Shown here: in pieces, positions 41,997 through 59,565 of the stretch | How positions within the stretch are numbered: the first letter of the stretch is position 1 | How the letters are laid out: each line of letters opens with the position of its first letter | Source: Desulfurococcales archaeon | Lineage (GTDB): Archaea; Thermoproteota; Thermoprotei_A; Sulfolobales; NBVN01 | Reading direction: 5' to 3' | Assembly: GCA_023255955.1 (NCBI GenBank) | Contig: JAGDWD010000007.1 | Coordinates: 135,929 to 199,928 of the forward strand | Length of the DNA stretch: 64,000 nucleotides | The notes under the pieces: model-generated | Databases searched by the model: none | Told to the model about the DNA's origin: nothing | The model's input: only the letters and a program-made list of their open reading frames with translations | Made by a program: the position numbers and the translations under genes

Positions 41997-42044
41997 TACG
42001 ATAGCAGAGCTTATAAGCTTTTCGTTTTAACATAAAACATGAAG

Positions 42045-42122
42045 CTATCATAGCTCAGCCTGGTGGAGCACCCCGGCCTTGTAAGCCCAGGAGTCACGGG
42101 TTCGAACCTTGCCGCGGCTCCA
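42045..42122 (+). pseudogene. Degenerate tRNA-Thr(TGT) copy
   Basis: The sequence follows the intact tRNA-Thr(TGT) at 44888-44961 through the D-arm (TAGCTCAG..GG..GAGC), anticodon loop (GGCCTTGTAAGCC), GGGTTCGAA loop and a CGGCTCCA end. The structure is spoiled: the 5' acceptor strand (..GCTATCA) does not pair with CGCGGC, the lower anticodon stem has C-C and C-A mismatches, and the T-stem has an A-C mismatch and G-U pairs. I read it as a relic, not a working tRNA. The 3' part overlaps the last codons of the broken ABC gene on the other strand. Confidence 0.7.
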
Positions 42123-44887: not shown

Positions 44888-44961
44888 GCCGCCGTAGCTC
44901 AGCTCGGTAGAGCGCCGGCCTTGTAAGCCGGATGTCGCGGGTTCAAATCCCGCCGGCGGCT
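44888..44961 (+). tRNA. tRNA-Thr (TGT)
   Basis: All stems pair: acceptor GCCGCCG/CGGCGGC with discriminator T, D-arm GCTCAGCTCGGTAGAGC, anticodon stem CCGGC/GCCGG with loop CTTGTAA (anticodon TGT), and T-arm GCGGG-TTCAAAT-CCCGC. CCA is encoded directly after (44962-44964). There is no intron. A degraded copy lies 2.8 kb upstream and the accessory genes lie between the two. Confidence 0.96.
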
Positions 44962-45133
44962 CCAGGTCACCGTACCCTGACTTTCACGGTGTCCTGAAGG
45001 ACAGTTTTCAGCTAGGTAGTTATGGCAGTAAGCTTCATAACTTCCTTTAAGCCCTCCAAAGATTCACTACCAAATCTCAAACATGTCTATCGGCATCCAC
45101 TATCTGAGATATCAGGATAGGCAGAGCCGTTTT

Positions 45134-51363: not shown

Positions 51364-52206
51364 TTACGAAGCTTGTTTTATTTTTAGCCCAGCAACCTCG
51401 TTGTAAACGTGGAAAAGGTAGTCAGGGTCCGCACTAAAGACGCGCATGTCATGTGGTATGTCTTCAGGTACGTTTCCGACACACTCTCTAAGTCTTTTAC
51501 GTAGGGAGCGTCTTCTCTGATTAAATAGACACTTAAGAAACTCCTCGTAGCCGATAAGCTCCTCACTCCACAACCTCTTTCTCCTCAGTACGACGACTGT
51601 GGACCATACCTTCGGTCTGGGTCTGAAGGAGCTTGGAGGATATTTCCCCCCTAGATCCACGTCCATGAATGTTCTAGTGAAGGCGGTGATCCTACCGTAG
51701 CTCCTTGAGCCGGGGGACGACGCTATCTTCTTAGCGACGTCATCCTGAAGTACTAAGATTGCTGCTTTAACGGGAGACTTGACTAATGATGCTATTATTC
51801 TCGATGAGATAACGTATGGGGTGTTTGAAACCACGACACAGCTATCTCTGAGGGATCCTATTAAGGGCACACCATCTGAAGCAACTATGTCGACTAAGCT
51901 ACTTGAGAACGTACTGCGGAGGTAGTCTAGGAACTTTAAATCTATCTCCGAGGCTATGACATACCCAGAGGACTTTTCGAGAAATAGCGTGAGTGACCCG
52001 AGACCTGAGCCAAGCTCGTAAACGTAGCATGTTGTGTGCTGGCAGATATTGATGAGCTTTGTAAGCACCTCAACCGCAAGATTGCAGTCAACTAGGATAT
52101 GCTGTCCCAGCTTCTTCACCATTTTAAGCTCTCGGGCTCTTTGTGAGAGCCTCTTAAGCTCGTAACATGCCCTTAAATAGTTAAGCGCCTCCCTACTAGG
52201 CACCAC
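51364..52206 (-). CDS. ksgA: 16S rRNA N6-adenine dimethyltransferase (KsgA/Dim1)
   Basis: A 280-residue SAM-dependent enzyme that dimethylates two adjacent adenines near the 3' end of 16S rRNA. Seen: KKLGQHILVDCNLAVEVL, VYELGSGLGSLTLFL (SAM loop), IASEIDLKF, VVSNTPYVISSRII (NxPY catalytic motif), FRPRPKVWSTVVVL and FLKCLFNQRRRSLRKRL. It is divergent from the Grc3-like kinase gene, with only about 10-40 bp between starts. Confidence 0.93.
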   Translation of the reverse strand: MVPSREALNYLRACYELKRLSQRARELKMVKKLGQHILVDCNLAVEVLTKLINICQHTTCYVYELGSGLGSLTLFLEKSSGYVIASEIDLKFLDYLRSTFSSSLVDIVASDGVPLIGSLRDSCVVVSNTPYVISSRIIASLVKSPVKAAILVLQDDVAKKIASSPGSRSYGRITAFTRTFMDVDLGGKYPPSSFRPRPKVWSTVVVLRRKRLWSEELIGYEEFLKCLFNQRRRSLRKRLRECVGNVPEDIPHDMRVFSADPDYLFHVYNEVAGLKIKQAS

Positions 52207-52216
52207 CTAGAGTTAA

Positions 52217-53536
52217 GTGTACCTGGTCTATATACTCTGGGTTCGGTTAGTGAGTTCAGCGATTGATGTGGTACTAGGTGAAGGTAGGGTACTGAGGGTA
52301 ATCGGCCCAGCTAGGATCGATGTAATTTCTGGGACTATCTTAGCTGTCGGGTCGAAGTTTACTTCAGGAGCCTCAATTGTCGTACATAAGTACAGATCCT
52401 ACGGGATTAAGGCTCTGTCGGAAGTTAAGCTCAGGGTCACCTTAGGTGAGGGCTCTAAGATCGAAGAAGTTAAGGAAGGTGAGGTAGTGGATGATTGGTT
52501 GAAGGCTTCCGAGCAAGTTCTTCATATATGTCGGAGGTCGCCGTGTAAGGTCCTCATAGCAGGCCCACCTGACTCGGGGAAGTCCACCTTCGCAGCATTC
52601 GTCGCTAACTACCTGAGAGAGGCTGGTATGAAGGTCTGTGTAGTGGAGGGTGATATAGGTCAGGAGGATGTTTTAGTTCCCACAACTATAGCTCTAGCTG
52701 AGGTATCAAAGCCGATTCTATGGTTGAGAGAGTTAGAGGCTTTAAAGTTCAGGTTCGTTGGATGTACTTCTCCACAGTACTGCTATTCCGAGAGTATACA
52801 AGCCATTAAAGAGTTAGTGGATGAGGCTGTTAAGATGGGCTTTAACGTTATAGTGGTGAATACTGATGGATGGGTCAACACTACCCTTGCTCTAGAGCAT
52901 AAGCTCTCTATAGTAAGATGGGTCAGACCGGACGTTATAGTAACGACTTCCAGTGAGTTATACAGCTACTTCTTGAGGTGCCTAGGTAAATTTGCTAAGA
53001 TCATAAATATCCCTAAGCCGACCGTAGTACGTGAGAGAAGCAAGGAGGAGAGGAGAGAGCTTCGGGTAGCAGCCTACAGAAGATACCTGAGTAAGGGTAA
53101 GCCTAGGAAGGTAAAACTCGATAGTATCGGGATAATTGGTGCTTGCTCCCTCTGCGGGGAACCCCTCACTAAAGACGATGTTAAGAACCTGCTGAAGGTC
53201 CCGGAAAATGTTCTTGAAAAAGTAGTTTACTCATCACGATTCGGTGATACGGTATTCTTAGTTGTGAAAGAACCGGTAGAGCTCTCAGCGAGTTCGTCGG
53301 GTCTTGAGAAGGTCTTCACTATCGTAGCTAGGGACATGGTAGGTTCGATAGTAGCTATTCTTGGGAGTGACATGCGGGAGGTCGGTATCGGTGTAATATT
53401 AAGTGTTGATATAGAATCGCGGGAGCTTACTATCCTGACTCCCTGGGACGGAGAGATTCGAGGTTTAATTGTTGGTAAAGTAAGATTGACTGAGGAATTC
53501 GAGGAGATGGGTAAGGTGATTCGATGTACTCTCTGA
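52217..53536 (+). CDS. Polynucleotide 5'-hydroxyl kinase, Grc3/Clp1 family
   Basis: An up to 439-residue RNA/DNA 5'-kinase. Walker A is GPPDSGKSTFAAFVANYL (about 118-135) and Walker B-like VCVVEGDIGQED follows, with VVNTDGW further on. Family members act in tRNA splicing and pre-rRNA processing. The frame starts at GTG 52217, but the GTG at 52250 (VSSAIDVVLGEG) fits better with the divergent ksgA start. It overlaps the UbiD-like gene by 13 bp, so a non-isoprenoid gene leads this operon. Confidence 0.87.
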   Translation: MYLVYILWVRLVSSAIDVVLGEGRVLRVIGPARIDVISGTILAVGSKFTSGASIVVHKYRSYGIKALSEVKLRVTLGEGSKIEEVKEGEVVDDWLKASEQVLHICRRSPCKVLIAGPPDSGKSTFAAFVANYLREAGMKVCVVEGDIGQEDVLVPTTIALAEVSKPILWLRELEALKFRFVGCTSPQYCYSESIQAIKELVDEAVKMGFNVIVVNTDGWVNTTLALEHKLSIVRWVRPDVIVTTSSELYSYFLRCLGKFAKIINIPKPTVVRERSKEERRELRVAAYRRYLSKGKPRKVKLDSIGIIGACSLCGEPLTKDDVKNLLKVPENVLEKVVYSSRFGDTVFLVVKEPVELSASSSGLEKVFTIVARDMVGSIVAILGSDMREVGIGVILSVDIESRELTILTPWDGEIRGLIVGKVRLTEEFEEMGKVIRCTL

Positions 53537-54822
53537 GTAATGTCGTCCGACAACACGTAGAGAAAGGATATGTGTATAGAATCGATAGGGAGCTAGACCC
53601 GGAACTAGAGCCTACGAAGTATATCATGAAATCAGATAATGCTGGGACTACACTATTATTTAAGGTACGAGGTTCCACCCTGGAATGTGTTAGTGGAGTA
53701 ATCAACACTAGAGAGAAATTATATGAGGTTCTTAGAGTTAGTAGAGATGAGGATGCTTACTCTAAGGTGATTAACTCATTAAATAGTAGGTCTCGGCAGA
53801 GCTTAAGGGAAGCAAGCTTTAGAGAGAATTACCGGGAGCTGTCGAGCTCCGCTCTATCCCTACCTGCAATAAAGTTCTACTCAGTTGACGGTGGTAGGTA
53901 CATCACTTCCTCCATAGTTATCGCGAAGACCCCGGATCTCGACTCCTATAACGCTTCAATACACAGACTTATGTACCTAGATAACCAAAGGTTTGCGATA
54001 AGGTTAGTTCCCAGACACCTATACAGTATCTACGAGACAAACAGGAAAGCCGGTAGGGATACTGAGGTAGCTGTAGTCATAGGTGCTCACCCGATTGTAG
54101 AGCTAGCAGCATCAATCTCACCACCCTACGGGGTTTTCGAACTTGAGATGGTGGGGAACCTAGGTGGGGAGCCCCTCGAAGTAGTTCGGACCCCGAAGTA
54201 CGGGATACCGGTACCGGCAAGAGCCTCCGTAGTAATGGAGGGTAGGATCACCAGGGAACTAGTCAGGGAGGGTCCTTTCGTAGACATTCTGGGCCTCCCA
54301 GATAGAGTCCGTGATCAACCGGTACTAGTAGTTGACTCGGTTTACGTACCTAGAGAGGATCCTGAGTATTTCCACGTCATACTTCCCGGAGGTAACGAAC
54401 ACATGCTCTTGATGGGGTTCCCTAGGGAGGCTGCTATATGGGATAGTGTGAGGAGGGCTGTACCGAAGGTTAAGAAGGTCAGGCTCACGAAGGGTGGGGG
54501 GATGTGGCTTCACGCAGTAATCTCCATTAAAAAGGTTGCTGAGGGTGATGGTAAGACTGCTATAATGGCTGCCTTCGCCGCCCATCCCAGCTTAAAGCAT
54601 GTAGTGGTTGTAGACGATGATGTTGATCCAGACAAACCGGAGGAGGTTGAATGGGCTATAGCTACGAGGTTGCAGGCTGGTAAGGGTCTTGTCATTATAC
54701 ACCACGCTAGAGGCTCCACTCTTGATCCGAGTTCTGAGGACGGACTGACAGATAAGGTAGGTATCGATGCCACCGCCCCCCTCAACCGCCGTGAGGAGTT
54801 CATAAGGCCTATAGTTGAGTAG
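53524..54822 (+). CDS. UbiD-family decarboxylase, probable anhydromevalonate phosphate decarboxylase
   Basis: A 432-residue prenylated-FMN-dependent decarboxylase. Seen: NQRFAIRLVPRHLYSIYETNRKAGRDTEVAVVIGAHPIVELAASI, ANxG-like EMVGNLGGEPLEVVRT, VPARASVVMEGRI, EGPFVDILG and KHVVVVDDDVDPDKPEEVEWAIATRLQ. UbiD homologues beside aconitase-X genes decarboxylate trans-anhydromevalonate 5-phosphate to isopentenyl phosphate in the archaeal modified mevalonate pathway (established for Aeropyrum pernix). That pairing holds here, with an 8-bp overlap to the next gene. Confidence 0.88.
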   Translation: MYSLSNVVRQHVEKGYVYRIDRELDPELEPTKYIMKSDNAGTTLLFKVRGSTLECVSGVINTREKLYEVLRVSRDEDAYSKVINSLNSRSRQSLREASFRENYRELSSSALSLPAIKFYSVDGGRYITSSIVIAKTPDLDSYNASIHRLMYLDNQRFAIRLVPRHLYSIYETNRKAGRDTEVAVVIGAHPIVELAASISPPYGVFELEMVGNLGGEPLEVVRTPKYGIPVPARASVVMEGRITRELVREGPFVDILGLPDRVRDQPVLVVDSVYVPREDPEYFHVILPGGNEHMLLMGFPREAAIWDSVRRAVPKVKKVRLTKGGGMWLHAVISIKKVAEGDGKTAIMAAFAAHPSLKHVVVVDDDVDPDKPEEVEWAIATRLQAGKGLVIIHHARGSTLDPSSEDGLTDKVGIDATAPLNRREEFIRPIVE

Positions 54823-56005
54823 GTGTTCGAGAATGTTCTTAACTAAGGAAGAAGAGAGAATACTAAGTGGAGATCTCGGGGTAGCAGCGGAGAGGGCCTT
54901 AAAGGTAATAGTTAGAGTTGGTGAGTCCTTAGGTGCTGACAGGCTAGTAAAGATATCACATGCTCACGTATCTGGCGTATCCTACTTCAATATCTTGGAC
55001 TACGGAGTAGAGTTTCTTGAGGATCTGTTGAGATCGGGAGCAAAGTTCTCAGTTTTCACTACTGCTAACCCATACGCTGTCATCTCTGGCTACAACAATA
55101 AGAACTTTGAGCCGGGTATAGTAAGTAAGCAGTTAAGAGTAATCAACTCCCTAAGAGATATGGGCGTCAAGCACTTCACCTGCACCCCATACTACGTTAG
55201 GAGACCATCCGCTGGGGAGCATCTAGCATGGGCTGAGAGTAGTGCCGTGCTCTACGCAAATAGCTTACTTGGAGCTATGACAAATAGAGAGCCGGGTATC
55301 ATAGCGCTACTAGCTGGAATCGTTGGAAGAACCTACCTCGGTGATGCCCATAGAGGATTACCCAGAAGTGCGGATTTCCTGGTCAGCGTGGAGAAACCTA
55401 GAGACGTGTCTGAGGCAGGTGCTCTCGGTCTTCTCGTAGGTGAGGCAGTAGGAGGTAACATCGCTGTGGTTGAGGGACTTGAAGGTCTTCCAGAGGCATA
55501 CATAAAGGAGTTCTTAGCAGCATTTGCTGTTAAGTCCCCAGCACACGTAGTCGTTCTTAAGGGGATAACCCCCGGGTATAGCGACGTAGATACCTCTAAG
55601 GCGGAGAAACTACGGTTTTCACGATTGGATATAGCTGAGATGTACGCAGAGCCTAAAATATCGGAGTGCCGCTCACCTCTCTTCCTAGTAGGATGCCCCC
55701 ATCTTTCAAGTGAGGAACTTAGTGAGGTTTTAGCTAAGGTTGGGGAAGTCAGTCGCGGAGAGTTATGGATCACCGTAGGAGATTACCTGGAAGCAATTGG
55801 GCTAACTCTATCCTCACACAGGGGAGTTAAGGTAATTACCGGTGCTTGTGCGGTCGTCACGAAGTTAAGTACCTTGGGGATTGACTGCGTAGTAACAGAT
55901 TCTGCTAAGGCACTCTCATATATACCTAAGTTATCTGGGGTAAGAACATTCCTTATCAGCAGGTCGAGATTGATTGAGATGGTGATGGGTCTTGATAGAG
56001 ATTAA
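54815..56005 (+). CDS. Aconitase-X large subunit (DUF521), probable phosphomevalonate dehydratase large subunit
   Basis: A 396-residue DUF521/aconitase-X catalytic subunit. Seen: FLTKEEERILSGDLGVAAERALKVIVRVGESLGADRLVKISHAHVSGVSY, FTTANPYAV, HFTCTPYYVRRPSAGEHLAWAESSAVLYANSLLGAMTNREPGI and LVGCPHLSSEEL. Cysteines in these blocks would bind the [4Fe-4S] cluster. With the small subunit it dehydrates mevalonate 5-phosphate. It overlaps its neighbours by 8 and 14 bp, so expression of the set is coupled. Confidence 0.92.
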   Translation: MSRCSRMFLTKEEERILSGDLGVAAERALKVIVRVGESLGADRLVKISHAHVSGVSYFNILDYGVEFLEDLLRSGAKFSVFTTANPYAVISGYNNKNFEPGIVSKQLRVINSLRDMGVKHFTCTPYYVRRPSAGEHLAWAESSAVLYANSLLGAMTNREPGIIALLAGIVGRTYLGDAHRGLPRSADFLVSVEKPRDVSEAGALGLLVGEAVGGNIAVVEGLEGLPEAYIKEFLAAFAVKSPAHVVVLKGITPGYSDVDTSKAEKLRFSRLDIAEMYAEPKISECRSPLFLVGCPHLSSEELSEVLAKVGEVSRGELWITVGDYLEAIGLTLSSHRGVKVITGACAVVTKLSTLGIDCVVTDSAKALSYIPKLSGVRTFLISRSRLIEMVMGLDRD

Positions 56006-56993
56006 CCTCGAGCCGGTGGGGCCTGCCCCTAAAGAGGTAATCTGCGGTGAGATAGTCGTATATAGAGAGCTAGTATCACCTCTAGGCGATATAGACCCCA
56101 ACACCGGGCATTTAAGAGGTGTTGGAGGTATTAAAGGTAAGATTCTAGTAGTAAAAGGTTTTACAGGTAGCACGGTAGGTCCCTACATCGTATACTCCCT
56201 CAAGAAGAGGGGGATAGCACCTAAGGCTTTAATAGTAGAGCAGGTAGATGCTAACGTCGTAGCGTCAGCAACCCTGGCTGAGATACCACTCTACAGAACT
56301 AGCAATATAGAGTTACTTACCGGCCTCCTGAGTAGAGGTAGGAAAATAGGCTGTGTGGAGGGTGGCAAGCTGAGGATGCGTGGTTTGGTGATAGCAGTAG
56401 AGGGTCTGGATGGTGCGGGTAAAACGACTATCGCCCATAAGCTCCTCGAGGCTTTACGAAGATGCGGTTACGATTCCGTATATACCTATGAGCCATACCA
56501 CAGTGATATCAGGAAGATCTTCGAGTCCGGTACTATGAAGTTGACACCTGCTGTTGAGGCATTGCTGATGGTTGCTGATAGATATGCTCACTACGAGGAA
56601 GTAATAAAGAGGGAAGTTGAGCTAGGTAGGATAGTTATCTTGGACAGATACAAGTATTCAACTCTAGCTTATCAAGGAGCTGCTGGAGTTCCTGTTGAGT
56701 GGCTTCGGGAGCTTCAGAAGTACCTACCCGATCCTGACCTAAGCATATACTTGGATATAGATCCTGAAGAAGGATTAAGGAGGAAAGTAGGTACTACAGC
56801 TCACTCTCTTACCTACTTCGAGAACCTGGAGAGGCTTAAAAAAGCTCGGGAAATCTACATCGAGTTATCTTCAAGAGGAGAACTATTGCTAGTGAACTCA
56901 TCTGCCGAGCTTTCAAGCGTTGTCCGGGAGGTTATAGAAGTCGTTGAAGAAAGGCTTGGACTCAGTATCTCAGGCTGTTTAATGTCGCAGTAG
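55992..56993 (+). CDS. Aconitase-X small subunit (DUF126) joined in frame to thymidylate kinase
   Basis: A 333-residue open frame with a TTG start. Residues 1-128 are the DUF126 swivel domain (VVKGFTGSTVGPYIVYSL with catalytic Ser60, then VDANVVASATLAEIPLY), the small subunit of phosphomevalonate dehydratase. Residues 129-333 are a complete dTMP kinase: P-loop VEGLDGAGKTT (136-146), EPYHSDIRKI, DRYKYSTLAYQG and DPDLSIYLDIDPEEGLRRK. No stop separates them, but Met129 (ATG 56376-56378) follows GAGG and could start a separate kinase. Fusion is the plain reading and independent initiation is the alternative. The 3' end overlaps fau-1 by 139 bp. Confidence 0.88.
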   Translation: MIEINLEPVGPAPKEVICGEIVVYRELVSPLGDIDPNTGHLRGVGGIKGKILVVKGFTGSTVGPYIVYSLKKRGIAPKALIVEQVDANVVASATLAEIPLYRTSNIELLTGLLSRGRKIGCVEGGKLRMRGLVIAVEGLDGAGKTTIAHKLLEALRRCGYDSVYTYEPYHSDIRKIFESGTMKLTPAVEALLMVADRYAHYEEVIKREVELGRIVILDRYKYSTLAYQGAAGVPVEWLRELQKYLPDPDLSIYLDIDPEEGLRRKVGTTAHSLTYFENLERLKKAREIYIELSSRGELLLVNSSAELSSVVREVIEVVEERLGLSISGCLMSQ

Positions 56994-58396
56994 ATATTAA
57001 TGGCTTCTCCCAATCCCTTGCTTATGTATTCATATATTTCCTGGCTTAGGTAGATGAAGTTATTCGCGATAAGGGATCTCAGCTCTTCCTGATCTACTAA
57101 CTCGCAAGAAGAGTTATCTACTCGGACAAGGTCTATGGAGAGATCAACATATTCTACAGTATTCGGGATCACGATCTCCGGTTTAGTGTTGAAGTTTACG
57201 TAGACTCCCTTGAGCTTGCCGTCGCTATTAAAGTAGTAGTGTACTATGTACGGGGTTCCTTCATACACGACGGTCCTTACTATATCTCCAGGCTCCTTCC
57301 TCACTCCTAAACCATCATAAACTCCACCCGACCTTATTCTCCTAAGAAGCTCGAGTTCCAGTCTCTCATCATACGATATCTTGGCTATGTTGGCTGAACC
57401 GAGTCTTATGTAATGACCATCGAGTTTCCTGTGATATATTGAGACCTCACCAACTTCCTCAGCAACCTTAGCTATGAATTTCCTGACAGTCCTCCTCAGT
57501 AAATCACTACTAATGTAACCCGATACTTCATCAAGTAGCTCGGCTATATCTCTATAAAGACCTTTGGACGTCTTTAAAATATGGTGGTAGTCTACTGTAG
57601 GAGTTACCACCCTTCTGTAGCTATCGAGATACAGCTTAGCGTCATAAGTTAAGAATATCGAGATTATCCTCTCACCGTTGGTTACGACTGAGACGTCCCT
57701 TAGTTCCCTAGTTTTCTCTTCCACCATCTCAAGCTGCTTGACTAGTCTCGGCAGCTCAGTTGCTATAGCTTCTAGATCAGCCTCATCGGAGTTACTTCTC
57801 CACTTAATGCTTAAGCCCTGCCTTACATACTTAGATGAGAGAGCCAACAATTCCGATATTCTGCCCTTATTTCTTATGTGTGGGCTGAACAACACCCTCG
57901 AACCTTTCCACACGACTGCGAAGTCTCCAACTACCCTCGCTCCAGGAACGACTACAATCGTGTCCTTCGGGTTCATCGGGACCCTTATAACGGATACGGG
58001 AAGTAAGCTACCTCCCTTGCATTCTTTATACTCTATCAGCTCAGCAAGTCCGTAAGGAGTCTCTACGAAGCATTTTCCTTCACGAGCTCCTCTAACCCTT
58101 GCTACAAGCGTAGCGTAGAGTCCTATTGGTGATGTATGTGATATTGTTGCTGGCACCCTCCCCACGATGGTTTTGGCTATAGCCTCCGAATGTTCGTAAT
58201 GTCCTATAACCAGTATTTTTGATGCATCATCATTATCCGTCTTCACAGTCACATCAGCTGGCAACCCCTTATTAGGGGGTACACCTAACCTCCTCACTAA
58301 CACGTCGCTGACATCGACAAGTGTATAGCCCTCATCCACAAGAATCTTAGATATAGCTGTTGCATAGATCCCCCTAACCCTGACCCTGACAGCCAC
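56855..58396 (-). CDS. FAU-1 family RNA-binding protein/ribonuclease (RNase E/G-like with DUF402)
   Basis: A 513-residue protein matching archaeal FAU-1. The N-terminal S1/RNase E/G-like half has VRVRGIYATAISKILVDEGYTLVDVSDVLVRRL and RVPATISHTSPIGLYATLVARVRG, a coiled helix lies at 225-240, and the C-terminal DUF402 domain has GDIVRTVVYEGTPYIVHYYFNSDGKLKGVYVNFNTKPEIV and VEYVDLSIDLVRVDN. FAU-1 binds AU-rich RNA and is reported to act on pre-rRNA. A Ser/Thr-rich tail (about 480-513) overlaps tmk on the other strand. It lies 17 bp after the UPF0147 gene. Confidence 0.88.
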   Translation of the reverse strand: MAVRVRVRGIYATAISKILVDEGYTLVDVSDVLVRRLGVPPNKGLPADVTVKTDNDDASKILVIGHYEHSEAIAKTIVGRVPATISHTSPIGLYATLVARVRGAREGKCFVETPYGLAELIEYKECKGGSLLPVSVIRVPMNPKDTIVVVPGARVVGDFAVVWKGSRVLFSPHIRNKGRISELLALSSKYVRQGLSIKWRSNSDEADLEAIATELPRLVKQLEMVEEKTRELRDVSVVTNGERIISIFLTYDAKLYLDSYRRVVTPTVDYHHILKTSKGLYRDIAELLDEVSGYISSDLLRRTVRKFIAKVAEEVGEVSIYHRKLDGHYIRLGSANIAKISYDERLELELLRRIRSGGVYDGLGVRKEPGDIVRTVVYEGTPYIVHYYFNSDGKLKGVYVNFNTKPEIVIPNTVEYVDLSIDLVRVDNSSCELVDQEELRSLIANNFIYLSQEIYEYISKGLGEAINIYCDIKQPEILSPSLSSTTSITSRTTLESSADEFTSNSSPLEDNSM

Positions 58397-59385: not shown

Positions 59386-59479
59386 TACACCACCGTAGAG
59401 GGCTGGAGTGAGTTTGTTATGTAGTTTCAGATAAACTTGTTACATAGAGGGGGATCAGTGAAACTAGTCGGGAAAGTGG

Positions 59480-59565
59480 AGCCGGGGGCGGGATTCGAAC
59501 CCGCGAAAGAGCGGGTTTCTACGACCACTGCAGCCCGCCGCCTTAGGCCGCTCGGCCACCCCGGC
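59480..59565 (-). tRNA. tRNA-Cys (GCA) with 11-nt intron
   Basis: Read on the minus strand: acceptor GCCGGGG/CCCCGGC, D-stem GCC/GGC, anticodon stem GCGGG/CCCGC, T-arm GCGGG-TTCGAAT-CCCGC. The anticodon loop is too long. Removing TGGTCGTAGAA (59517-59527) after position 37 leaves CTGCAGA with anticodon GCA. The discriminator is T, as expected for tRNA-Cys, and CCA is encoded (59477-59479). The intron is at the canonical 37/38 position. Confidence 0.88.

What the first reader, a model, noticed from the sequence alone, without database searches (positions are those of the whole stretch)
55992..56993. Phosphomevalonate dehydratase small subunit fused in frame to thymidylate kinase
The DUF126 (aconitase-X small subunit) frame has no stop and runs straight into a complete dTMP kinase with its P-loop. 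I know these as separate proteins, one in isoprenoid synthesis and one in DNA precursor synthesis. A true fusion would tie DNA-precursor and lipid-precursor enzymes in one polypeptide. Alternatively, the kinase starts at the internal ATG (Met129, preceded by GAGG) and the small subunit lacks its own stop codon, so two products could come from one frame. Either case is unusual.
Basis: partly seen in the sequence, partly recalled or inferred. Interest (0 to 1): 0.7.

Follow-up and report, generated by a model that had tools for sequence, protein, structure and literature searches.

The report
Mevalonate dehydratase subunit fused to dTMP kinase
In one genus of heat-loving archaea, a piece of a membrane-lipid-precursor enzyme and the cell's only detected dTMP kinase (a DNA-precursor enzyme) are encoded as one continuous protein; the fusion is real and shared by all seven species examined, and it probably arose when two neighbouring genes lost the stop and start signals between them.

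Summary
Window 55992-56993 (+) is one open frame of 333 codons: an AcnX swivel domain (phosphomevalonate dehydratase small subunit), then a complete dTMP kinase. All seven species held of this genus (order Sulfolobales; six are named as MAGs from several projects) carry the same open fusion, 56-62% identical, with no indel in the 30-codon junction. Outside the genus, none of the other genomes examined (222 of the class, plus a sample of the phylum) showed a fusion; there the two genes are often adjacent or overlapping in an unchanged gene order. Both domain trees put the seven fusions in one clade, so one origin.

The alternative (kinase starting at Met129) fails as a general explanation: the residue is Pro or Phe in the other six species. 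Five of seven have no ATG/GTG/TTG that could start a whole kinase, whereas all 25 unfused kinase genes do, 20 with a ribosome-binding motif. The fusion is the only detected copy of this kinase in all seven genomes. Two AlphaFold models (pTM 0.92) give a confident, rigid junction.

Best reading: one bifunctional polypeptide that tethers dTMP kinase to the dehydratase. The architecture is new to us; each half is ordinary. Functional coupling is undemonstrated.

The parts
55992..56993 (+). Fused gene: PMDh small subunit + dTMP kinase, 333 aa, TTG start, TAG stop
55992..56375 (+). AcnX type-II small subunit (swivel) domain, residues 1-128; catalytic-serine motif Ser60-Thr61-Val62 conserved
   Evidence: Pfam AcnX_swivel_put; phmmer to 7cnr_B, TkPMDh small subunit, E 3e-14; Ser62/Thr63/Val64 role from PMC8184944
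56376..56990 (+). dTMP kinase domain, residues 129-333: P-loop EGLDGAGKTT at 137-146, TYEP at 165, ADR at 195, DRYKYSTLAYQG at 218
   Evidence: TIGR00041 DTMP_kinase 139.5 bits, cut-off 83.25; PDB fold matches to dTMP kinases; motif positions
56304..56393 (+). Junction, residues 105-134: no stop and no indel in seven species; pN/pS 0.53; no shared start codon
56376..56378 (+).
   Evidence: Pro/Phe in the other six species; no usable SD spacing
55981..55985 (+). SD-like GGTGA, 6 nt before the TTG start; a GGTG-type motif stands at about this place in all seven species
54815..56005 (+). PMDh large subunit (AcnX), overlapping the fused gene by 14 nt; Cys123, Glu141, Cys294 and Cys345 stand at the places expected for the Fe-S ligands and the acidic residue (true start may be ATG 54833)
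   Evidence: PF04412 E 1e-99; 7cnr_A E 6e-58; positions
53524..54822 (+). UbiD-family decarboxylase, probably anhydromevalonate phosphate decarboxylase, next step of the pathway
   Evidence: TIGR00148 and PF01977
52217..53536 (+). CLP1-type P-loop protein, first gene of the same block
   Evidence: PF16575; synteny

Best explanation
The gene makes one polypeptide of about 37 kDa in which the swivel (small) subunit of archaeal phosphomevalonate dehydratase (AcnX type IIb) is joined, with almost no linker, to the cell's only detected dTMP kinase. The ancestor had the two genes adjacent in the operon CLP1-ubiD-acnX(large)-acnX(small)-tmk; loss of the stop of one and the start of the other in the ancestor of this genus fused them in place. 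The small-subunit half pairs with the large subunit, encoded just upstream, to dehydrate mevalonate 5-phosphate; the kinase half makes dTDP. The kinase is therefore carried on the dehydratase complex at fixed stoichiometry. Shown: the fusion, its conservation, single origin, lost separate start, single copy, conserved motifs, confident predicted fold. Inferred: both activities are kept, the complex forms, and no substrate is channelled (the pathways share no metabolite).
For: Open frame with both domains; same fusion in 7/7 species, none among the other genomes returned from the class or a phylum sample; no junction indels and pN/pS below 1; no shared internal start, five of seven with none, against 25/25 unfused genes with one; one clade in both trees; unchanged gene order in fused and unfused relatives; only PF02223 copy in 7/7 genomes and only PF01989 copy in the window's genome; catalytic motifs kept; mevalonate kinase and isopentenyl phosphate kinase encoded elsewhere in all seven; AlphaFold pLDDT 95.5 and pTM 0.92 for two species, pLDDT 97-98 across the junction.
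Against: No protein or RNA data. The genomes are draft assemblies (six named as MAGs), so a missing second kinase in an unassembled part cannot be wholly excluded, though all seven agree. In the window's own species ATG129, TTG132 and GTG133 could give some free kinase. Proteolytic separation after translation cannot be seen in sequence. Neither activity has been measured.
Confidence: 0.82

Rival explanations
1. One frame, two products: the full fusion plus a separate kinase started inside the frame (ATG129, TTG132 or GTG133 in the window).
For: In the window's species in-frame start codons exist at 122, 129, 132 and 133, with a GAGG 9 nt before TTG132. L003 has a GTG at position 122 with AGGT 8 nt upstream.
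Against: None of these is shared by the genus. L002, L006 and L007 have no ATG/GTG/TTG at positions 105-141; L004 and L005 only a GTG inside the P-loop region. All 25 unfused kinase genes keep a start and 20 keep an SD, so the genus has lost these signals.
Confidence: 0.1
2. Two products by processing: the fusion is translated whole and then cut at the junction by a protease, so the mature enzymes are separate.
For: Nothing direct; the domains are separable in relatives.
Against: The junction is predicted as two ordered strands with a two-residue turn, pLDDT 97-98, not a floppy exposed linker. The junction is less conserved than the domains (pN/pS 0.53 against 0.29) and shows no obvious fixed cleavage motif.
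Confidence: 0.05
3. The fusion has a regulatory purpose: dTMP/dTDP binding or kinase motion changes dehydratase activity (or the reverse), coupling DNA-precursor and membrane-precursor supply.
For: The fusion was kept through large divergence. The two domains are predicted to pack rigidly, and the small subunit moves by ~26 degrees on substrate binding in TkPMDh, so the kinase would move with it.
Against: No shared metabolite and no measured effect. The genes were already operon neighbours, so a near-neutral stop loss explains the fusion, and loss of the separate start would then lock it in.
Confidence: 0.15
4. The kinase half has become a kinase of the mevalonate pathway rather than a dTMP kinase.
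For: It sits in, and is fused to, the mevalonate gene block.
Against: Isopentenyl phosphate kinase and mevalonate kinase are encoded elsewhere in all seven genomes. It is the only PF02223 copy, scores as dTMP kinase above cut-off and keeps the family motifs in all seven.
Confidence: 0.02

Closest known systems
AcnX type-IIb phosphomevalonate dehydratase (Aeropyrum pernix ApPMDh, Thermococcus kodakarensis TkPMDh, PDB 7CNR/7CNS)
   Same: Separate large subunit with conserved Cys/Glu positions; small subunit with the STV motif; gene block with a UbiD-family decarboxylase
   Different: In the characterised enzymes the small subunit is a free protein of about 130-135 residues; here its C-terminus continues into dTMP kinase
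dTMP kinase (Tmk; Aquifex aeolicus 2PBR, Sulfolobus tokodaii 2PLR)
   Same: Whole fold and motifs
   Different: Has a 128-residue enzyme subunit in front of beta-strand 1 and, in most of these species, no start codon of its own
[quoted passage not shown]
   Same: Also has a swivel domain whose C-terminus is fused to another domain (order 4-linker-1-2-3, PMC8184944)
   Different: There the partner is the enzyme's own catalytic part; here the catalytic part remains a separate gene and the partner is an unrelated kinase

Membership tests
AcnX type-IIb PMDh small subunit | AcnX swivel domain | tested here: met
   PF01989 67.7 bits, cut-off 27; 7cnr_B E 3e-14
AcnX type-IIb PMDh small subunit | Catalytic Ser-Thr of the STV motif (Ser62, Thr63 in TkPMDh) | tested here: met
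   Ser60-Thr61-Val62, invariant in the seven fusions
AcnX type-IIb PMDh small subunit | Partner large subunit with Fe-S cysteines and Glu, encoded separately | tested here: met
   54815-56005, Cys123/Glu141/Cys294/Cys345 (ligands named in PMC10040528)
AcnX type-IIb PMDh small subunit | Small subunit is a free-standing polypeptide | tested here: not met
   No stop before the kinase in 7/7 species
AcnX type-IIb PMDh small subunit | Dehydrates mevalonate 5-phosphate in a 1:1 complex with the large subunit | not testable with these tools
   Needs the purified complex
dTMP kinase | TIGR00041 equivalog score above cut-off | tested here: met
   139.5 against 83.25 bits
dTMP kinase | P-loop, DRY and AYQ motifs | tested here: met
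   Invariant or nearly so in seven species
dTMP kinase | dTMP kinase fold | tested here: met
   Foldseek TM-score to target 0.77-0.89, probability 1.00
dTMP kinase | dTMP phosphorylation | not testable with these tools
   Needs assay or complementation

The most novel reading that the evidence does not exclude
The rigid fusion is a regulatory device: nucleotide binding by the kinase and the swivel motion of the dehydratase influence each other, coordinating DNA-precursor and membrane-lipid-precursor synthesis.
Probability: 0.15. Interest if true: 0.75.

Novelty: new variant of a known kind. Interest (0 to 1): 0.45.

Why it matters
Two essential, metabolically unrelated enzymes appear to be bound in one polypeptide, with the kinase's own start lost in most species of the genus. 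It gives a clean natural case of operon neighbours becoming a protein fusion, with unfused intermediates (same frame, a single stop between the genes) still present in relatives, and it makes the Rosetta-stone question testable: does such a fusion imply functional coupling, or is it drift made permanent? For annotation, the fused protein should carry both names.

Tried and rejected
Sequencing error or chance open frame: rejected by seven species. Internal start at Met129 as the genus-wide mechanism: rejected. Kinase as a replacement for isopentenyl phosphate kinase: rejected, IPK present in 7/7. Second free tmk or small-subunit gene: none found. Independent fusions elsewhere: long-frame candidates G378, G419 and G483, whose kinase ORFs were read in full, show no AcnX swivel domain by eye or by the profile match, only non-conserved upstream frames; G181 has the two genes back to back in one frame with a single TAG between them; G013, G020 and G024, flagged with frames of ~360, also have a TAG. 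Literature: no paper in the held library links AcnX or DUF126 with thymidylate kinase in a relevant way. A first alignment for structure prediction misplaced small-subunit tails onto the kinase and was replaced by one with trimmed tails.

Full report
OBSERVATION. Frame 55992-56993 (+) translates without a stop to 333 residues. Residues 29-100 match the aconitase-X swivel domain and 136-313 thymidylate kinase, both well above Pfam's cut-offs; NCBIfam names the second half dTMP kinase above its cut-off. Upstream on the same strand lie a CLP1-type P-loop gene, a UbiD-family decarboxylase and the AcnX large subunit, each overlapping the next by a few bases. This is the modified archaeal mevalonate gene block; mevalonate kinase and isopentenyl phosphate kinase are encoded elsewhere in the genome.

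CONSERVATION. A search of 60 relatives found the fusion, stop-free and full length, in all seven species of the genus (56-62% identity to the window's copy) and in none of the 53 others. A search of 229 genomes of the class returned it only in the same seven, and a sample of 398 genomes of the phylum returned no other (the match lists of both wide searches are cut, so weaker places were not all seen). Three phylum genomes with unusually long frames around the kinase were read: none carries the swivel domain in front of it. Six of the seven appear as named records, MAGs titled Sulfolobales, Desulfurococcaceae or Thermoproteota from several projects, so an assembly error is not a plausible explanation.

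ANCESTRAL STATE. By my count, 31 of the 53 unfused genomes have the small-subunit gene followed within about 100 bases by the kinase gene on the same strand (21 of 24 in the family). The gaps run from slight overlaps to 66 bases, in the same or a different frame. G015, G026 and G181 have both genes in one frame with a single stop between them, the state from which a fusion is one short step away. Gene order around the block (ksgA, CLP1, ubiD, acnX large, small, tmk, DUF402, UPF0147) is essentially the same in fused and unfused relatives (in L035 DUF402 lies further off). Trees of the kinase domain and of the small-subunit domain each put the seven fusions on one side of a branch (support 100/99 and 99/96): one origin, then inheritance as a unit.

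ONE PRODUCT OR TWO. The residue there is Met only in the window; it is Pro or Phe in the six others. Within positions 105-141 three species have no ATG, GTG or TTG at all, and two have only a GTG inside the P-loop region, too late for a whole kinase. By the same test all 25 unfused kinase genes have a start, 20 of them with a Shine-Dalgarno-like motif 4-10 bases upstream (the species are related, so this is not a formal significance test). By contrast, the start of the fused gene has a GGTG-type motif just upstream in all seven. The junction has no indel; its pN/pS is 0.53 against 0.29 for each domain (synonymous sites are near saturation, so these are rough). The separate start has been lost in most of the genus, and there the kinase should reach the cell only as part of the fusion. 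Some internal initiation in the window's own species remains possible.

FUNCTION. The small-subunit half keeps the Ser-Thr-Val motif; in TkPMDh Thr63 binds the substrate's carboxyl group and Ser62 lies next to its C2 (PMC8184944). The large subunit keeps residues at the places of the Fe-S cysteines and the glutamate (PMC10040528). The kinase keeps the P-loop, ADR, DRY and AYQ motifs, and its predicted fold matches solved dTMP kinases. Only one PF02223 kinase was found in each of the seven genomes and one swivel domain in the window's genome, so both halves are presumably essential (inference). Because mevalonate and isopentenyl phosphate kinases exist separately, the kinase has not been recruited into the mevalonate pathway.

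STRUCTURE. AlphaFold models of the window's protein and of a divergent congener's fusion (L006) both give pLDDT 95.5 and pTM 0.92. The last strand of the small subunit (126-129) is followed after two residues by strand 1 of the kinase (132-138), with pLDDT 97-98 through the junction. The two halves are thus predicted to be rigidly placed, not hung on a flexible linker; only the seven fused rows can inform this packing, so it should be held loosely. In TkPMDh the small subunit rotates about 26 degrees on substrate binding, so the kinase would move with it. Since dTMP kinases are generally dimers (own knowledge), a (large + fusion)2 assembly is expected but untested.

VERDICT. A real, genus-wide, single-origin fusion of two ordinary enzymes that were operon neighbours. 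As an architecture it was not found in the held literature and should be annotated as one bifunctional protein. Whether it couples lipid-precursor and DNA-precursor synthesis is open; a near-neutral stop loss made permanent by loss of the kinase's own start is the simplest account.

Noticed in passing
56855-58396 (-): The convergent DUF402 gene ends with about 40 residues, read antisense over the 3' end of the fused kinase gene, that are absent from relatives, whose DUF402 stops before reaching the kinase's conserved part. It looks like a separate stop-loss extension in this species.
   Followed up: partly
59477-59565 (-): ARAGORN reports a tRNA of unclear identity (4-base anticodon gcag); Rfam confirms a tRNA. 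The anticodon loop is about 18 bases, as if it held a short intron; possibly tRNA-Cys(GCA).
   Followed up: partly
51364-53536: A KsgA-type rRNA dimethylase gene and a CLP1-type P-loop gene flank the mevalonate genes with conserved order in fused and unfused relatives, CLP1 overlapping ubiD.
   Followed up: no
42043-42121 and 44888-44964 (+): Two tRNA-Thr(TGT) calls by ARAGORN about 2.8 kb apart; Rfam supports only the second at its gathering score.
   Followed up: no
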